This document shows, in pieces, positions 18,558-39,039 of a stretch of 53,951 nucleotides of DNA. The notes beneath the pieces were generated by a model. That model saw only the letters and a list, made by a program, of their open reading frames with translations. It did not search any database and was not told where the DNA came from. Position 1 is the first letter of the stretch; the number at the start of each line of letters is the position of its first letter. Position numbers and translations under genes: made by a program. Origin of the DNA: a virus. Where the stretch lies: the IMG/VR virus record IMGVR_UViG_3300021339_000008, positions 1 through 53,951 of that record, one strand, 5' to 3'.

Positions 18558-18748
18558 TCAGATCCGCCAGTGCAGCGCGGTGACCTCGACACCGGGCCGG
18601 GCGCCGGCGAGCGCGTGCGCGAGCAGGAACGCCTCGGCGTCAGTTGTGGCGGCGACCACGACGCGGGTCCGGTACACGGCGGTGACACCGCGTTTCAGGT
18701 CCGCGTGCGTGGCCGTCTCCGCGTCGAAGCTGTAGACCGCGACGTCAC
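18558..18748 (-). pseudogene. Probably frameshifted small gene after RlaP gene
   Basis: A natural-looking minus-strand frame ends at 18558 and reads VAVYSFDAETATHADLKRG, then VTAVYRTRVVVAATTDAEA and ends VEVTALHWRI. It has no in-frame ATG/GTG/TTG at its expected 5' end. A GTG overlapping the RlaP stop (GTGA at 18748) sits one base out of frame; adding one base after GTGAC would restore a 63-aa protein. Either a one-base deletion, a sequencing error or a shorter protein from an inner GTG explains it. Confidence 0.45.
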
Positions 18749-19572
18749 GCCTCGATCCACGCGGGCGGGTTGGCCCAGTACTCCCGGTGCGCTTCGATCA
18801 GCCACCGGTCCGCCGCTTCCCGGTCCGGTTCGGCCGGCAGCGGGCTGGAGTCGAGCAGCGCGGTGAGCTCCGCCTCCGCCTCGCTGGCCGCGTCGAGCGC
18901 CCACTCCTTCGACCGCTCGCCGTACCGCAGGGCGGTGAGGTCGGACCGCCACGGCTCGGGCATCGGCAGCGTCAACCGTCCGGTGCGCAGCAGTTCGACG
19001 CCCTGCACTCCGAGTCGCACCATGTGGTAGGCGAACTTGGTGTCGAACCCGTGGAGGTCGACCAGCTCCGGCCGGTTCGTGTGTCGCTGCCCGCGGAGGC
19101 CGAGCATCTGCTCGCGTTGGGACCGCAGGTAGCCGATGAACCGGTGTCCGGCCTGCCGGGACAGGATCATCTCCGGGTGCTCGCGCAGGTACCGGCCGGT
19201 GGCGGTGCTGTCGACGACCTCGGAGTCCGGGACGAACAGCGGCAATAGCACCGTCGGGTTGCCCTGCAGGGCGAGCCGCAGCCACTTCCGCAGCGAGTAG
19301 ATCACCAGGTCGATGTCACCTGGTCCGGAGCGGACGCCCTGCGGTTGGGTGCGGTACTCGTACTGGTCGAACCGGCGCAGGCCGATGACGTACTCGGGTG
19401 GTTCGAGGCAGATGCCCATCTCGTCGCGGTCGTCCTGTTCGGCCACGGTGACGCCGTGGACGCCGCTGCCGACCTGGGTGCGCAGGATCTCACCGCGCAG
19501 CGCGAGGTCGCGGGCCGTCGGGGTGGAGTGCGGGCCGGTGAACGCCGCCGTGTAGATCACGCCGCCCATCAT
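18745..19572 (-). CDS. RlaP-type nucleotidyltransferase (DNA polymerase beta fold)
   Basis: A 275-aa protein, start at ATG 19572 overlapping the previous stop (ATGA). It carries the family layout: GSGVHGVTV with acidic DDRDEMGICLEPPEYV, then FDQYEYRTQ, then a GPGDIDLVIYSLRKWLRLAL block with catalytic Asp residues, and GNPTVLLPLF. RlaP (PF10127) proteins are polymerase-beta-like nucleotidyltransferases linked to RNA repair by context. Here the gene lies in a small minus-strand operon, so it may act on host RNA or nucleotides during infection or lysogeny (inference). Confidence 0.75.
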   Translation of the reverse strand: MMGGVIYTAAFTGPHSTPTARDLALRGEILRTQVGSGVHGVTVAEQDDRDEMGICLEPPEYVIGLRRFDQYEYRTQPQGVRSGPGDIDLVIYSLRKWLRLALQGNPTVLLPLFVPDSEVVDSTATGRYLREHPEMILSRQAGHRFIGYLRSQREQMLGLRGQRHTNRPELVDLHGFDTKFAYHMVRLGVQGVELLRTGRLTLPMPEPWRSDLTALRYGERSKEWALDAASEAEAELTALLDSSPLPAEPDREAADRWLIEAHREYWANPPAWIEA

Positions 19573-31937: not shown

Positions 31938-32254
31938 CCGTCTACGTGGACCGGTTCATCGTCTCCGTGCCGCCGAAGTGGGAGGGCGGCGGCCACCTGC
32001 TGACGTCCGACATCGAGGAGCTGCACCGGTTCGCCGCCCGCATTGGGCTGAGGCGCGCGTGGTTCCAGGACAAGACGTTCCCGCACTACGACCTCACGCG
32101 GAACAAGCGGGCATCAGCGCTGCACAACGGCGCGACGTCGATCGAGCCGGGCCAGTTCCCGGAGGACCTGCTGGTCCGCAGCCCCGACGGAACCCACGAG
32201 CCGTACGCGGCCCGCGTGGCCCGCCGTTCGACCACCGAGGGGGCGAGTACCTGA
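31934..32254 (+). CDS. DUF4031 protein
   Basis: A 106-aa protein with the DUF4031 layout: MTVYVD start, GGHLLTSDIEELHRFAARIG, then WFQDKTFPHYDL and KRASALHNGAT. Conserved His, Asp and Lys could form a small enzymatic site, but the activity of the family is not established. ATGA overlap before and TGATG overlap after place it with the DUF5131 gene. Confidence 0.75.
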   Translation: MTVYVDRFIVSVPPKWEGGGHLLTSDIEELHRFAARIGLRRAWFQDKTFPHYDLTRNKRASALHNGATSIEPGQFPEDLLVRSPDGTHEPYAARVARRSTTEGAST

Positions 32255-33180
32255 TGGCCGACAAGACCGGCATCGAGTGGACCGACGCGACCTGGAACCC
32301 GACCACGGGCTGTGACCGGGTCTCGGACGGCTGCGACAACTGCTACGCCCTGACCCTCGCCGGTCGGCTCAAGGCGATGGGCTCGGCGAAGTACCAGACC
32401 GACGGGGACCCCCGGACGTCCGGTCCGGGCTTCGGGATCGCGGAGCACGCGACGACGCTCGATCAGCCGCTGCGGTGGACCAAGCCGCGCATGATCTTCG
32501 TCAACTCGATGTCCGACCTGTTCCACGACGGCGTGTCCGACGCGTTCATCGCCGAGGTGTTCTCGGTGATGGCCCGCGCGCCACGGCACACCTTCCAGGT
32601 GCTGACGAAGCGGCACGGGCGGATGCGGTCCCTGCTGAACCGGCCGTCGTTCCGCGACAACCTCGCGCATCTCGCGCCGTGGCCGCTGCCGAACGTCTGG
32701 CTCGGGGTCAGCGTCGAGGACCAGAAGCGCGCCGACCTCCGGGTGCCCGCATTGCTCGACACCCCGGCCGCTGTCCGCTGGTTGTCGTGCGAGCCGTTGC
32801 TCGGACCCGTGGACCTGGGCATCGGGGATCCGCACCGTGGCCACGACAGCGACGACGTCAACGGGCACCCGCACCCCCGGATCTGCCTGACCTGCTCGAC
32901 AGACGATCACGAGGTCGAGTACTTCCGCCGCGACCAGAGCGCCAACCCCGGCATCGACTGGCTCGTGGTTGGCGGCGAGTCCGGAGGCGCCCACGTCAGG
33001 CCGATGGACGTCGCCTGGGCGCGGTCCCTGCGGGACCAGTGCGCCGCTGTCGAGCTCCCGTTCCTGTTCAAGCAGTGGGGCCACCACGACGCCGCCGGGC
33101 AGCCGGTCGGCAAGCACGCCGCCGGGCGCACGCTCGACAGCCGGACCCACGACGACTACCCGGTGGTGGCCCGTGGCTGA
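32254..33180 (+). CDS. DUF5131 (phage Gp37/Gp68) protein
   Basis: A 308-aa protein. The N-terminus has TGIEWTDATWNPTTGC and SDGCDNCYA, a three-Cys cluster of radical-SAM type. Further family segments are IFVNSMSDLFH, FQVLTKRHGRM, NVWLGVSVEDQ, WLSCEPLLGPV and VGGESGG followed by FKQWG. The family is common in phages and mobile islands next to methyltransferases, as here; its substrate is unknown. An inserted Cys/His segment (HPRICLTCSTDDHE) lies near residue 210. Confidence 0.8.
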   Translation: MADKTGIEWTDATWNPTTGCDRVSDGCDNCYALTLAGRLKAMGSAKYQTDGDPRTSGPGFGIAEHATTLDQPLRWTKPRMIFVNSMSDLFHDGVSDAFIAEVFSVMARAPRHTFQVLTKRHGRMRSLLNRPSFRDNLAHLAPWPLPNVWLGVSVEDQKRADLRVPALLDTPAAVRWLSCEPLLGPVDLGIGDPHRGHDSDDVNGHPHPRICLTCSTDDHEVEYFRRDQSANPGIDWLVVGGESGGAHVRPMDVAWARSLRDQCAAVELPFLFKQWGHHDAAGQPVGKHAAGRTLDSRTHDDYPVVARG

Positions 33181-34153: not shown

Positions 34154-34545
34154 CCTTCGTCGACCCGATCGGCCTGATCCGCTCCGCCATGGGCGACCCC
34201 GGCCAGTACTGCCCGCGCGGCGACGGCGAGTCGGTGCCTGGGTGGGGCGCTCGCGCCGCCGCGATCGCCCTGACCCGCGCGGGGGTCCGCCTGGCCATGC
34301 CGGGAGAGGTGGTGGTGCGGCTGCCGGAGATCCAGGACACGGGGACCGACTCGTCTGGAGCCGTGTGGACGCACTGCGGCCAGGCGTACGGCCAGGCTTA
34401 CCCGGATCTCGCCACCGCTGGCCTGCCCGGTCTGAGCATGACCCTGGACGACGCGCGAGCTCGCGCGTTGGAACTGCTGGCCGTCGCGGAGCACATGCAG
34501 CGCGCCACCTCCCCGGCTGAACCCACCGCGGCAGGAGACGAGTGA
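34150..34545 (+). CDS. Small protein sharing the RLAMPG motif
   Basis: A 131-aa protein from GTG 34150 (GTGA). It shares the helix-plus-RLAMPG unit with the preceding gene but has a different C-terminus (LSMTLDDARARALELLAVAE). The adjacent pair looks like a partial duplication. No function assigned. Confidence 0.6.
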   Translation: MTFVDPIGLIRSAMGDPGQYCPRGDGESVPGWGARAAAIALTRAGVRLAMPGEVVVRLPEIQDTGTDSSGAVWTHCGQAYGQAYPDLATAGLPGLSMTLDDARARALELLAVAEHMQRATSPAEPTAAGDE

Positions 34546-34778
34546 TGCGCACGCAGTTCCTCCGCCCACGCCGCGGCTCCTGGCGGGATCGTCGCCTGCT
34601 CGTCTACATCGAGCTGCGTGACCTGTGGATCGGCGCGTTCGTCGCACGGGATGCCGTCTACGTCGTCCCTCTGCCGGGCCTGGTGTTCAGGTGGGATCGG
34701 GCCCTGCCTGGTTCCCTCTGGGCGGCTGAGCCCACCGACCACCCGTCCTCCCCACCCGTGGGAGGTGGGGACAGGTGA
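34542..34778 (+). CDS. Small basic protein, unknown function
   Basis: A 78-aa protein, ATGA overlap. The Arg-rich N-terminus (RPRRGSWRDRRLLVYI) is followed by short beta strands (LWIGAFVARDAVYVVPLPGL). Its GTGA overlap with the C5 methyltransferase start suggests coupled translation. Confidence 0.6.
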   Translation: MMRTQFLRPRRGSWRDRRLLVYIELRDLWIGAFVARDAVYVVPLPGLVFRWDRALPGSLWAAEPTDHPSSPPVGGGDR

Positions 34779-36508
34779 CCGCGATCGACTTCGAACTCGA
34801 CTACACGGACATCTTCTGCGGCGCCGGCGGCAGCTCCATCGGCCTCACCGAGGCCGGGTTCACCCTGAAACTCGCCGCCAACCACTGGGCCCGCGCCATC
34901 GAGACCCACGCCGCCAACTTCCGCGACGCCGACCACCTCTGCGCCGACGTCAACAACTACGACATGCGCCGCCTGCCGCGCACCGCGGTGCTGTGGGCGT
35001 CGCCGATCTGCACCGAGAACAGCCCGGCCGGCGGCCGCCGACGACGCAGCGCGCAACCGGACCTGTTCGACCACGGCCCGGTCGACGACGCCGCGTTCGA
35101 GCGGACCCGCGCCACCTTCTGGGACGTCATCCGCGCCACCGAGGTCCACCGCTACCAGGCGGTGATCGTCGAGAACGTCGTCGAGGCCGCGAGCTGGGAG
35201 CTGTTCGACGTTTGGCTCACCGCGATGCGCACCCTCGGCTACAACGCCCAGACGGTGTGTGTGTCCACCGCGCACGTCGGCGACGACGCCAACCCGCACG
35301 CGCCGCAGTGGCGCGACCGGCTCTACATCGTCCTCACCCGGATCGGCATCCCGCTGCCCGACGTCGCACCCCGTCCACCCGCGTGGTGCCAGGAGTGCGA
35401 CGAAGACGTCGCCGCGGTGCAGAGCTGGAAGGACCCACGGAAGCGGAAGATCGGCAAGTACCGCCAGCAGTACCTGTACCGGTGCCCGAACACGGGCTGC
35501 CACCAGGCGGTCGTCGAGCCGTACGTGCTCCCGGCCGCCGCGGCGATCGACTGGACCGACCTCGGCCAGCGCATCGGCGACCGGGCGAAGCCGCTCGCCG
35601 ACAAGACCCTCGCGCGGATCCGCGCCGGCCTGGCGCAGTTCGCCGAGCCGATCACCCTGGAAGCCACGGGCAACACGTTCGAACGCCGACCCGGGGTGCG
35701 GACCTGGCCCGCCGCCGGGGCGCCGCTGACCACCGTCACCGGCTCGGCCACCAAGGCCGTCGCGTGTCCACCGCTGTTGGTCCCGACCGGCGGCACGTGG
35801 AACGAGACCGTCACCTCGACCGGCGAGCCGATGCGCACCCGCCTGGCGAACGAGAAGGGCTTCGAGGGGATCGTCAGCGCGCGTCCGCTGATGCTGTCGG
35901 TGAACCACGACGACGAGCACGGACGCGTCTTCCCGGCTGCCGCCGCGCCGCTGCCGCCGCGCACGACCAAGATCGGCGATGCCTTGGTGCTGCCGTTCAT
36001 CACCGAACTGCGCGGCGGCAGCTCCGACGTCCGGCCGATCCACGACCCGCTGGCCACCCTGGCGGCATCGGGCAACCACCACGGGCTGACGGTCCCGCCG
36101 GGCGCGTTCTTCACCAAGCACTACACCCCGCGCGGCCGCGACGGCCAGATGTGCAAGAACGTCCGCACCGACCCGCTCGGTGCCATCCTCGCCGCCGGCG
36201 GCCGCCACTCCCTGGTCGTGCCCTACTACCGCACCGGGCGGGCCAAGACCACCGCCAGCCCGCTGGACACCGTCACCAGCCGGGAGCGGTTCGCCCTGGT
36301 CGAGGCCATCGGCTCGGCCGAGGTCGACGACTGCCTGTTCCGCATGTTGCAGCCGCGCGAGCACCTCCGCGCCCAACGGTTCCCCGACAGCTACATCGTC
36401 ACCGGGAACAAGGGCGAGCAGACCATGCAGGCCGGAAACGCCGTCTCGGCCAACGTCGCCCACTGGCTCGGCCGCGCCATCGCCGCAGTCCTCGGAGGTA
36501 CCGCATGA
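34775..36508 (+). CDS. C5 cytosine DNA methyltransferase
   Basis: A 577-aa enzyme that would methylate C5 of cytosine using SAM. Motif I is DIFCGAGGSSIGL (11-23); motif IV has the catalytic Cys79 in SPICTENS instead of PPCQ; motif VI is ENV (133-135); motif VIII QWRDR (178-182); motif X GNAVSANVAHWLG at the end. A zinc-ribbon-like CQEC ... CPNTGC insert lies near 205-242, before a long target-recognition region. No partner restriction enzyme is encoded nearby, so it is probably protective against host restriction. It overlaps the next gene by ATGA. Confidence 0.85.
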   Translation: MTAIDFELDYTDIFCGAGGSSIGLTEAGFTLKLAANHWARAIETHAANFRDADHLCADVNNYDMRRLPRTAVLWASPICTENSPAGGRRRRSAQPDLFDHGPVDDAAFERTRATFWDVIRATEVHRYQAVIVENVVEAASWELFDVWLTAMRTLGYNAQTVCVSTAHVGDDANPHAPQWRDRLYIVLTRIGIPLPDVAPRPPAWCQECDEDVAAVQSWKDPRKRKIGKYRQQYLYRCPNTGCHQAVVEPYVLPAAAAIDWTDLGQRIGDRAKPLADKTLARIRAGLAQFAEPITLEATGNTFERRPGVRTWPAAGAPLTTVTGSATKAVACPPLLVPTGGTWNETVTSTGEPMRTRLANEKGFEGIVSARPLMLSVNHDDEHGRVFPAAAAPLPPRTTKIGDALVLPFITELRGGSSDVRPIHDPLATLAASGNHHGLTVPPGAFFTKHYTPRGRDGQMCKNVRTDPLGAILAAGGRHSLVVPYYRTGRAKTTASPLDTVTSRERFALVEAIGSAEVDDCLFRMLQPREHLRAQRFPDSYIVTGNKGEQTMQAGNAVSANVAHWLGRAIAAVLGGTA

Positions 36509-39039
36509 CCACCGCCGAACGCATCACCCCCGACGGCCGGGCCTACATCGAGTTCCTGGCGGCGAAGACGCAGCTGGCGCCGGTGACCGGGTTCCAGGTG
36601 GATCCGGACGAGGTGCACCCGAGCCTGAAGGCACACCAGCGCGACGCCGTGCTGTGGGCGGTCCGCGGCGGCCGGCGCGCCGTGTTCGCCAGCTTCGGCC
36701 TGGGCAAGACCCGAATCCAGCTGGAGATCGAACGGCTGGTGCTGGCCAAGCTCGGCGGCGGCCGCGGTCTGATCACCCTCCCGCTCGGCGTCCGGCAGGA
36801 GTTCATCCGCGACGCCGCCGACCTGGATACCTCGGTGCGGTTCATCCGCACCGAGGACGAGGCACGGACCGACGGCCTGTACCTCACCAACTACGAGACG
36901 GTCCGCGACGGCAAGCTCGACCCGCGCCGGTTCGACGTCGTCTCGCTGGACGAGGCCGCCATCCTGCGCGGCTTCGGAGGGTCGAAGACGTTCCGCGAGT
37001 TCATGCGCCTCTACGAGGGCAGCGCCGGCTACCGGTTCGTGGCCACGGCCACCCCCTCGCCCAACGAGTACATCGAGCTGCTCGCCTACGCCGCGTTCCT
37101 GGACGTGATGGACGTCGGCCAGGCCAAGACACGCTTCTTCAAGCGCGACAGCACCAAGGCCGACAAGCTGACCCTGCTGCCGCACATGGAAGAGCAGTTC
37201 TGGCTGTGGGTGGCGTCGTGGGCGCTGTTCCTGCAGAAGCCTTCCGACCTCGGTCACTCCGACGACGGCTACGAGCTGCCGCCGATGGAGGTGCGCTGGC
37301 ATGAGGTGGCCGGCGGCCCGGTCGACCCCGACCGCGACGGCCAGGGTGCGCTCCTGCACACCGCCCGGCTCGGGGTGCAGGAGGCGGCGAAGGCCAAGCG
37401 GGACAGCCTCACCGCCCGGGTCACCGCCACGGCCGAGCTCGTCGACGCCGACCCGGGTGAGCACTTCCTGATCTGGCACGACCTCGAGGACGAACGCCGC
37501 GCCATCACCGCGGCGATCCCGGACGCGGTATCGGTGTGGGGTTCACAGGACCTCGACGAACGCGAGCAGCGGATCATCGACTTCTCCGACGGCCGGTTCC
37601 GCATCCTCTCGACCAAGCCGGTCATCGCCGGGTCGGGGTGCAACTTCCAGCGGCACTGCCACCGGGCGATCTTCACCGGCATCGGCTTCAAGTTCGCCGA
37701 CTTCATCCAGGCGGTCCACCGGATCTACCGCTTCCTGCAGACCGAGCAGGTGCGCATCGACATCATCTACTCGGAGGCCGAGCGGTCGGTCCGGGCCGAG
37801 CTGGAACGCAAGTGGGCCCAGCACGTCGCCGCGTCCGCGCGCATGGCCGAGATCATCCGCACCTACGGCCTGTCCCACGAGGCGATGGCCAGCACCCTGC
37901 GCCGCTCGATCGGCGTGGAACGGGTCGAGGTAGCCGGCGACGACTACCGCCTGGTCAACAACGACACCGTCCTGGAAACGTCGTCGATGGCCCCCGACAG
38001 CGTCGACCTGATCGTCACGTCAATCCCGTTCAGCACCCAGTACGAGTACACGCCCAGCTACAACGACTTCGGCCACACCGACGACAACGGCCACTTCTGG
38101 GCGCAGATGGACTTCCTCACCCCGCAGTTGCTGCGAGTCCTGGCGCCCGGCCGCAACGCCGTCATCCACGTCAAGGACCGCATCGTCCCCGGCGGCATGA
38201 CCGGCCTCGGCTTCCAGACCGTGCAGCCGTTCCACGCCGAAGCGATCGCCCACTACACCCGGCACGGGTTCGCGTTCCTCGGGATGAAGACGATCGTCAC
38301 CGACGTCGTCCGGGAGAACAACCAGACCTACCGGCTGGGCTGGACCGAGCAGTGCAAGGACGGCTCCCGCATGGGCGCTGGCATGCCCGAGTACCTGCTG
38401 ATCTTCCGCAAGCCGCCGTCCGACCACTCCGATGGCTACGCCGACATCCCGGTGGTGAAGTCGAAGGAGCGCTACTCGCGGACCCGCTGGCAGATCGACG
38501 CGCACGGGTTCGCCCGCTCCAACGGCAACCGGCCGCTGCTGCCGCACGAGCTCGCCGAGCTGCCCCATGACCAGATCTTCAAGCGGTTCCGGGAACGGTC
38601 CCTGACCGCCGTGTACGACTTCGACGAGCACGTCCGCATCGGCGAGGACCTGGAGACAGCCCGCCGGCTCCCGACCACGTTCATGCTGCTGCAGCCCGCG
38701 TCGTGGCACCCGGACGTGTGGACCGACGTCGCCCGCATGCGCACCCTCAACATGCTGCAGGAGCGGAAGGGCCAGCAGCAGCACCTGTGCCCGCTGCAGT
38801 TCGACATCGTCGACCGCCTGATCGAGCAGCTGTCCATGCCCGGCGACACCGTGTTCGACCCGTTCGCCGGCCTGATGACCGTGCCGTACTGCGCGCTCAA
38901 GCTCGGCCGCCGCGGCGTCGGGGTCGAGCTGAACCCCGAGTACTTCCGCGACGGCATCGCCTACGTCCAGGCCGTCGCTGACGAACAGGCAGTGCCCACC
39001 CTGTTCGACCTCGTTGACGCAGAACAGGCCGTCTCATGA
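36505..39039 (+). CDS. SF2 helicase - DNA amino-methyltransferase fusion
   Basis: An 844-aa protein. Residues 1-440 form an SF2/SNF2-like helicase: Walker A SFGLGKT (63-69), DEAA box (149-152), TATPSPN (181-187) and motif VI QAVHRIYR (402-409). Residues about 470-844 form a permuted adenine-N6/cytosine-N4 methyltransferase, with catalytic TSIPF (505-509) first and the SAM-binding FDPFAG (784-789) last, followed by GVGVELNPEY. The TSPPY-type motif has Ile in place of a Pro. It could translocate along DNA and modify it, alone or with the C5 enzyme. Confidence 0.85.
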   Translation: MTTAERITPDGRAYIEFLAAKTQLAPVTGFQVDPDEVHPSLKAHQRDAVLWAVRGGRRAVFASFGLGKTRIQLEIERLVLAKLGGGRGLITLPLGVRQEFIRDAADLDTSVRFIRTEDEARTDGLYLTNYETVRDGKLDPRRFDVVSLDEAAILRGFGGSKTFREFMRLYEGSAGYRFVATATPSPNEYIELLAYAAFLDVMDVGQAKTRFFKRDSTKADKLTLLPHMEEQFWLWVASWALFLQKPSDLGHSDDGYELPPMEVRWHEVAGGPVDPDRDGQGALLHTARLGVQEAAKAKRDSLTARVTATAELVDADPGEHFLIWHDLEDERRAITAAIPDAVSVWGSQDLDEREQRIIDFSDGRFRILSTKPVIAGSGCNFQRHCHRAIFTGIGFKFADFIQAVHRIYRFLQTEQVRIDIIYSEAERSVRAELERKWAQHVAASARMAEIIRTYGLSHEAMASTLRRSIGVERVEVAGDDYRLVNNDTVLETSSMAPDSVDLIVTSIPFSTQYEYTPSYNDFGHTDDNGHFWAQMDFLTPQLLRVLAPGRNAVIHVKDRIVPGGMTGLGFQTVQPFHAEAIAHYTRHGFAFLGMKTIVTDVVRENNQTYRLGWTEQCKDGSRMGAGMPEYLLIFRKPPSDHSDGYADIPVVKSKERYSRTRWQIDAHGFARSNGNRPLLPHELAELPHDQIFKRFRERSLTAVYDFDEHVRIGEDLETARRLPTTFMLLQPASWHPDVWTDVARMRTLNMLQERKGQQQHLCPLQFDIVDRLIEQLSMPGDTVFDPFAGLMTVPYCALKLGRRGVGVELNPEYFRDGIAYVQAVADEQAVPTLFDLVDAEQAVS

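What the first reader, a model, noticed from the sequence alone, without database searches (positions are those of the whole stretch)
34775..39039. C5 methyltransferase coupled to a helicase-methyltransferase fusion
Two DNA methyltransferases of different chemistry overlap by four bases. The second one carries a full SF2 helicase at its N-terminus and a permuted amino-methyltransferase with TSIPF instead of TSPPY/NPPY. No nuclease domain was recognised, so this is not a simple restriction system. It may be a translocating modification system that protects phage DNA or guides hypermodification.
Basis: partly seen in the sequence, partly recalled or inferred. Interest (0 to 1): 0.75.

Follow-up and report, generated by a model that had tools for sequence, protein, structure and literature searches.

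The report
Phage motor-driven DNA methylase pair
A temperate phage carries two overlapping genes for enzymes that put methyl groups on DNA, one of them fused to a DNA-tracking motor; the fused enzyme belongs to a large, already annotated but apparently untested phage family that most likely marks phage DNA so that bacterial restriction enzymes cannot cut it.

Summary
A cytosine-C5 methyltransferase (34775-36508) and an 844-aa Snf2-type ATPase/beta-class amino-methyltransferase fusion (36505-39039) overlap by ATGA. Both look catalytically intact and no restriction nuclease was found in or beside them. The fusion is not unusual: 308 phage records, at least 599 IMG/VR stretches and 387 genome contigs encode relatives. 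SEA-PHAGES records call it 'DNA helicase/methylase'; a 2017 paper described the Snf2 + methylase dyad and a 2025 paper noted the helicase-methylase order in Pacc40 gp60. The 'odd' TSIPF is this family's signature: 122 of 124 non-redundant members carry [TS]S[IVW]PF. A sister family has SPPF and is often split into neighbouring genes. New here: the C5 gene is a recurrent but exchangeable partner. It occurs in 40 of 83 loci with full flanks (DnaB-anchored control 8 of 37), always on the same strand, touching the fusion in 18 loci (1.6 expected), in either order. C5 partners are far more divergent (median 29% against 62%), and many carry tandem ~35-aa repeats where target recognition sits. Best reading: an antirestriction modification module. 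Hypermodification is unsupported. Specificity, methylated base and translocation are untested.

The parts
34775..36508 (+). Cytosine-C5 DNA methyltransferase, 577 aa (P0001), GTG start
   Evidence: PF00145 E=3e-27; phrog_116 E=2e-57; ENV (E133 N134) and R180/R182 invariant or nearly so in relatives
35003..35011 (+). C5 motif IV variant: P77-x-C79 (SPIC) instead of PC; P and C invariant in 24 aligned sequences
   Evidence: alignment A4
35708..36316 (+). C5 repeat region between motifs VIII and IX: 5 hits of a ~35-aa PLxT[VIL] repeat model, 3 of them above 10 bits; putative tandem target-recognition elements
36505..36508 (+). ATGA overlap between C5 stop and fusion start
36505..39039 (+). Snf2-ATPase/beta-class amino-MTase fusion, 844 aa (P0002)
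   Evidence: phrog_16 E=8e-124 over 19-842; relatives in 308 phage records
36622..37824 (+). Snf2-type ATPase region (residues 40-440): FGLGKT 64-69, LDEAA 148-152, TATPSP 181-186, QAVHRIYR 402-409
   Evidence: motif census; Snf2 fold matches; SsoRad54 match by profile
37942..38979 (+). Amino-MTase region (residues 480-825), permuted beta-class order
   Evidence: PF01555 500-815; TTHA0409 match
38017..38031 (+). Motif IV TSIPF (505-509); [TS]S[IVW]PF in 122 of 124 non-redundant members
38305..38364 (+). Most conserved 20-residue block of the protein, VVRENNQTYRLGWTEQCKDG (601-620), mean pairwise identity about 0.96
38422..38709 (+). TRD-like region between motifs VIII and X (640-735), mean identity 0.55 (cores 0.62-0.65); part of it absent from the SPPF sister family
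38857..38871 (+). Motif I DPFAG (785-789), SAM binding
34542..34778 (+). 78-aa ORF of unknown function overlapping the C5 start by GTGA; possible operon member
   Evidence: no Pfam match; not chosen by the codon-usage gene caller

Best explanation
The two genes form a phage DNA-modification (antirestriction) module. The 844-aa protein uses its Snf2-type ATPase to move along double-stranded phage DNA or to release itself from sites, and its beta-class MTase methylates an exocyclic amino group (N4-cytosine or N6-adenine) at a target that seems shared across the family. The C5 MTase adds 5-methylcytosine at one or several other sequences, probably set by the repeat elements in its recognition region, and is exchanged between phages. 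Together the marks keep host restriction enzymes from cutting phage DNA. Shown here: gene structure, folds, intact motifs, family breadth, co-occurrence, exchange. Inferred: activity, translocation-coupled methylation, sites, protection.
For: Catalytic motifs conserved across 124 non-redundant members. No nuclease in the protein and no restriction nuclease among the listed Pfam families of 135 immediate neighbours, where C5 MTase is the commonest. Relatives sit in phages, prophage-like contigs and a few plasmids of many phyla. C5 MTase within the flanks in 40 of 83 full-flank loci against 8 of 37 DnaB-anchored loci of at least 12 kb (Fisher p=0.008; 13 of 79 over all, p=2e-5), adjacent in 18 against 1.6 expected, same strand in 51 of 51. 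In the same 39 loci fusion median identity is 62%, C5 29%. A near relative (matching flank segments 74-99% in DNA, 92-96% over most of the downstream replication genes) keeps a 63%-identical fusion and lacks any C5 in the 8 kb upstream. Precedent: Snf2-methylase dyad and DarB protection against EcoKI (PMC5512222).
Against: No methylome or restriction data for any member were found. The phage carries a DnaB helicase, but a recombination or repair role for the Snf2 part is not excluded. About half of the loci show no C5 partner. The DnaB control loci are less related to one another and on average shorter than the fusion loci, and loci are not phylogenetically independent.
Confidence: 0.6

Rival explanations
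1. The Snf2 part serves phage DNA replication or recombination (branch migration, protein displacement), and the methylase marks newly made or parental DNA for that purpose; antirestriction is secondary.
For: Neighbours include replication and recombination genes: DnaB, primase, SSB, RusA, sliding clamp. The clamp gene is an immediate neighbour in several loci. The protein is strongly conserved (median pairwise identity 59% over 124 members), which fits a housekeeping role.
Against: Early-region genes cluster together anyway; the window phage has its own DnaB, RecT-like and RusA genes; the gene is patchy in phages and was replaced by a divergent allele between close relatives.
Confidence: 0.2
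2. A phage-borne restriction-modification system in which the motor-MTase acts with a separate nuclease, as an ATP-dependent exclusion system against competing phages.
For: Motor plus MTase is the Type ISP and Type III logic; HNH genes lie next to or between the parts in some relatives (Fancypants, Veteran, hattifnatt).
Against: No recurrent nuclease neighbour among the listed families of 135 adjacent proteins; HNH genes in phages are commonly homing elements, and such an insertion is described in Pacc40 gp60 (PMC11855218).
Confidence: 0.08
3. The methylation regulates phage or host genes (lysogeny control) rather than protecting DNA.
For: Temperate phage with an integrase and LuxR-type regulators; GcrA-type genes next to some relatives.
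Against: Exchangeable C5 partners with probably different sites fit an arms race better than a fixed regulatory site; GcrA genes may simply be common in alphaproteobacterial phages (not tested).
Confidence: 0.1

Closest known systems
Phage 'DNA helicase/methylase' family (PHROG 16; e.g. Pacc40 gp60, BodEinwohner17 gp70, Auxilium gp73)
   Same: Same domain order and motifs over about 98% of the protein at 57-63% identity
   Different: Nothing essential; the window copy is one more divergent member, with C5 immediately upstream
DarB-type DNA methylase-helicase dyad of phage P1 and other polyvalent proteins
   Same: MTase and Snf2-type ATPase in one phage polypeptide; proposed to modify entering DNA with motor help (PMC5512222)
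   Different: DarB has a gamma-class N6 MTase (NPPY/F) N-terminal to the helicase and is a virion head protein; here a beta-class MTase lies C-terminal, in an early-region gene
Type ISP restriction-modification enzymes (LlaGI, LlaBIII)
   Same: Single chain with SF2 motor, then MTase, then recognition part (PMC4666363)
   Different: No Mrr-type nuclease domain; different MTase class and motif order
Multispecific C5 methyltransferases of Bacillus phages (phi3T, SPR)
   Same: C5 MTase with several elements in the recognition region; PTLT core in phi3T gp150
   Different: The repeat profile gives phi3T gp150 only a non-significant hit (-1.2 bits)
Actinophage orphan 'DNA methylases' (ShiLan gp65/Dorothy gp75 family, PMC9957025)
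   Same: Found in the same kinds of phages; possibly the C5-type partner
   Different: Assignment to P0001's family was not tested directly

Membership tests
Phage DNA helicase/methylase family (PHROG 16) | Full-length match with Snf2 ATPase followed by permuted amino-MTase | tested here: met
   phrog_16 over residues 19-842, E=8e-124; 302 of 308 phage records match over at least 80%
Phage DNA helicase/methylase family (PHROG 16) | Subfamily signature [TS]S[IVW]PF plus REN[NAS]QT | tested here: met
   122 of 124 and 123 of 124 members; window has TSIPF and RENNQT
Type ISP restriction-modification | N-terminal Mrr-family nuclease in the same chain | tested here: not met
   Motor begins by about residue 40; no nuclease hit
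DarB-type polyvalent protein | Gamma-class NPPY/F MTase N-terminal to helicase, LPD36 domain, very large protein | tested here: not met
   844 aa, beta-class order, MTase C-terminal (definition); LPD36 itself was not searched with a model
Beta-class amino-MTase (PF01555) | Motif IV before motif I; DPF.G SAM motif; [DNS]PP[YF] catalytic motif | tested here: inconclusive
   Order and DPFAG met; motif IV is SIPF, not SPPF, family-wide
C5 DNA methyltransferase (PF00145) | Motif I FxGxG, catalytic Cys, ENV, RxR, C-terminal GN | tested here: met
   All present; catalytic Cys as PxC
Multispecific C5 methyltransferase | Two or more functional target-recognition domains | not testable with these tools
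   Repeats present; structure of the region not predicted (pLDDT about 25)
Antirestriction modification system | Methylated virion DNA resists restriction | not testable with these tools
   Needs methylome and plating assays

The most novel reading that the evidence does not exclude
A two-layer phage shield: a motor-driven amino-MTase with an almost invariant non-PPY active site and one constant or relaxed target, useful against many restriction systems in many phyla, plus a swappable multi-target C5 MTase whose recognition repeats are gained and lost to match local hosts.
Probability: 0.22. Interest if true: 0.65.

Novelty: new member of a known kind. Interest (0 to 1): 0.36.

Why it matters
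The family is common and its domain pairing is known, but I found no report of its target, its methylated base or whether the motor is needed. It is a tractable test of whether translocation helps a modification enzyme, and its constant motif set with a changing C5 partner makes predictions that methylomes of existing mycobacteriophage or Pseudomonas phage stocks could check.

Tried and rejected
Hidden nuclease in P0002 or an adjacent restriction gene: none found. Hypermodification genes: none among the listed Pfam families of 76 window genes (25 of 32 printed). TSIPF as a degenerate active site: rejected, it is family-wide with an intact SAM motif. SF2 part as the phage's replicative helicase: unlikely, a DnaB is present. 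Text search for TSIPF in papers: nothing relevant. Match of the C5 repeats to the phi3T recognition domains by profile: not significant. AlphaFold2 of the C5 repeat region: no confident fold. The most conserved block 601-620 of the fusion also had low confidence, so its role stays open.

Full report
Observation. The window is a single virus record of 71.5% G+C with capsid, portal, terminase, integrase, DnaB, RecT-like, exonuclease VIII and RusA genes, so probably a temperate tailed phage. The two genes are as described: C5 MTase 34775-36508 and fusion 36505-39039, sharing ATGA.

What the fusion is. Residues 40-440 form a Snf2-type ATPase: the fold search returns Mot1, ISWI, Chd1, INO80 and SsoRad54, and the family profile finds SsoRad54 by sequence. 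Such proteins track along duplex DNA and need not unwind it (knowledge of the family; PMC5512222). Residues 480-825 are a permuted beta-class amino-MTase nearest to TTHA0409 in solved structures. No nuclease domain was found by any library or fold search.

Family. tblastn finds relatives in 308 phage records, 302 over at least 80% of the length, in phages of Mycobacterium, Flavobacterium, Arthrobacter, Pseudomonas, Gordonia, cyanobacteria, Rhizobium and others. IMG/VR gave at least 599 stretches, GTDB species genomes 387 and plasmids 14 records. A tree of 73 members groups mainly by host phylum, with more changes of phylum than the minimum (9 against 6). Annotators already call it 'DNA helicase/methylase'. 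Iyer et al. 2017 described coupling of Snf2 ATPases and adenine MTases in phages (PMC5512222), and a 2025 paper states the helicase-then-methylase order for Pacc40 gp60 (PMC11855218). So the kind is known; I found no functional study.

TSIPF. In 124 non-redundant members motif IV is TSIPF 109, TSVPF 7, SSIPF 5, TSWPF 1, TSPPF 1, FSPPF 1; motif I is D[PY]F.G in 123; REN[NAS]QT in 123. The block 601-620 is the most conserved stretch of the whole protein. The first proline of the usual SPPY/F is thus replaced family-wide, mostly by isoleucine, while the rest stays intact. From general knowledge, N[LI]PY in KsgA/Erm RNA methylases is a similar replacement, so activity is plausible; whether the base is cytosine or adenine cannot be told. 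A sister family has SPPF, lacks part of the TRD-like region and occurs both fused (FCV-1, 729 aa) and as adjacent helicase and methylase genes (Fancypants, EBPR podovirus 1, hattifnatt). The same two parts in fused and in neighbouring-gene form argues that they work together. A 331-aa intein in Veteran sits directly before the invariant C762.

Target constancy. The TRD-like region 640-735 has mean identity 0.55 against 0.62-0.65 for helicase and MTase cores. That is less conserved, with its lowest stretch at about 675-705, but not hypervariable as expected if targets changed often. This suggests, without proving it, one shared or relaxed target.

The C5 partner. Using a C5 profile built here, 51 of 124 non-redundant loci hold a C5 gene in the flank, 40 of 83 where both flanks reach 5 kb, 18 touching (within 100 bp) against 1.6 expected, and 51 of 51 on the same strand. 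The expectation treats loci as independent, which they are not. DnaB-anchored control loci have 13 of 79 (8 of 37 of at least 12 kb) and terminase-anchored loci 0 of 18 (Fisher p = 2e-5 and 0.008 for the DnaB comparisons). Order varies: C5 lies upstream in some loci and downstream in others, with the 4-base overlap in both orders. In 39 shared loci median pairwise identity is 62% for the fusion and 29% for C5. In a close relative of the window phage the matching flank segments are 74-99% identical in DNA (92-96% over most of the downstream replication genes), the fusion is only 63% identical in protein (72% in DNA) and no C5 is present in the upstream 8 kb. The C5 gene therefore behaves as an exchangeable partner.

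C5 repeats. Between motifs VIII and IX many of these C5 enzymes carry PLxT[VIL] repeats spaced mostly 31-40 residues, up to 8-9 per protein, where shuffles give about one chance motif. The window enzyme has five hits, three above 10 bits. The repeat model was built from these same enzymes, so its scores on them are not independent evidence; the excess of the motif over shuffles and its regular spacing are. Their position is that of target-recognition domains, and C5 recognition domains are known for a T[LIV] core (own knowledge), so tandem recognition elements are a fair guess; the profile does not significantly match phi3T gp150 and AlphaFold2 gave no fold there.

Mechanism. Most likely an antirestriction modification module: the motor-MTase lays down amino-methyl marks, the C5 enzyme adds sequence-specific 5mC. 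Shown: structure of the locus, intact motifs, breadth, association, exchange. Inferred: activity, role of the motor, sites and protection. DarB and Type ISP enzymes work on similar logic but the window protein fails their defining tests (gamma-class N-terminal MTase; nuclease domain). Hypermodification has no support.

Verdict. Observation confirmed; interpretation partly supported; a new member of a known kind, with some new comparative facts about the C5 partner.

Noticed in passing
window 32254-33180: DUF5131 (PF07505) protein 1.6 kb upstream of the C5 gene; a family that looks like DUF5131 by eye is a recurrent neighbour of the fusion (cluster 3, 16 of 124 loci), and the gene's DNA shows no match in the close relative L276.
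   Followed up: partly
L094:3986-7498: Veteran fusion carries a 331-aa intein directly before the invariant Cys of motif X (HVC/PLQ); several RefSeq records of such genes are named anaerobic ribonucleoside reductase.
   Followed up: partly
fusion residues 65-69 in 31 of 124 members: Walker A reads G[LM]HKT instead of GLGK[ST] in a quarter of the family.
   Followed up: no
L095 and L096: Two loci with the same match 57 kb apart on one contig of a Thermoplasmata MAG; duplicate prophage, assembly artefact or mis-binned contig.
   Followed up: no
L006, L092, L107 and others: Phage-encoded DNA polymerase III sliding clamps next to or near the fusion in several loci.
   Followed up: partly
window 18745-19572 (-): phrog_388 nucleotidyltransferase; one window gene, probably this one, matches RlaP (RNA repair DNA polymerase beta family).
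   Followed up: no
L091:5438-6018: HNH endonuclease and a short ORF sit between split helicase and methylase genes in Flavobacterium phage hattifnatt9-1.
   Followed up: no
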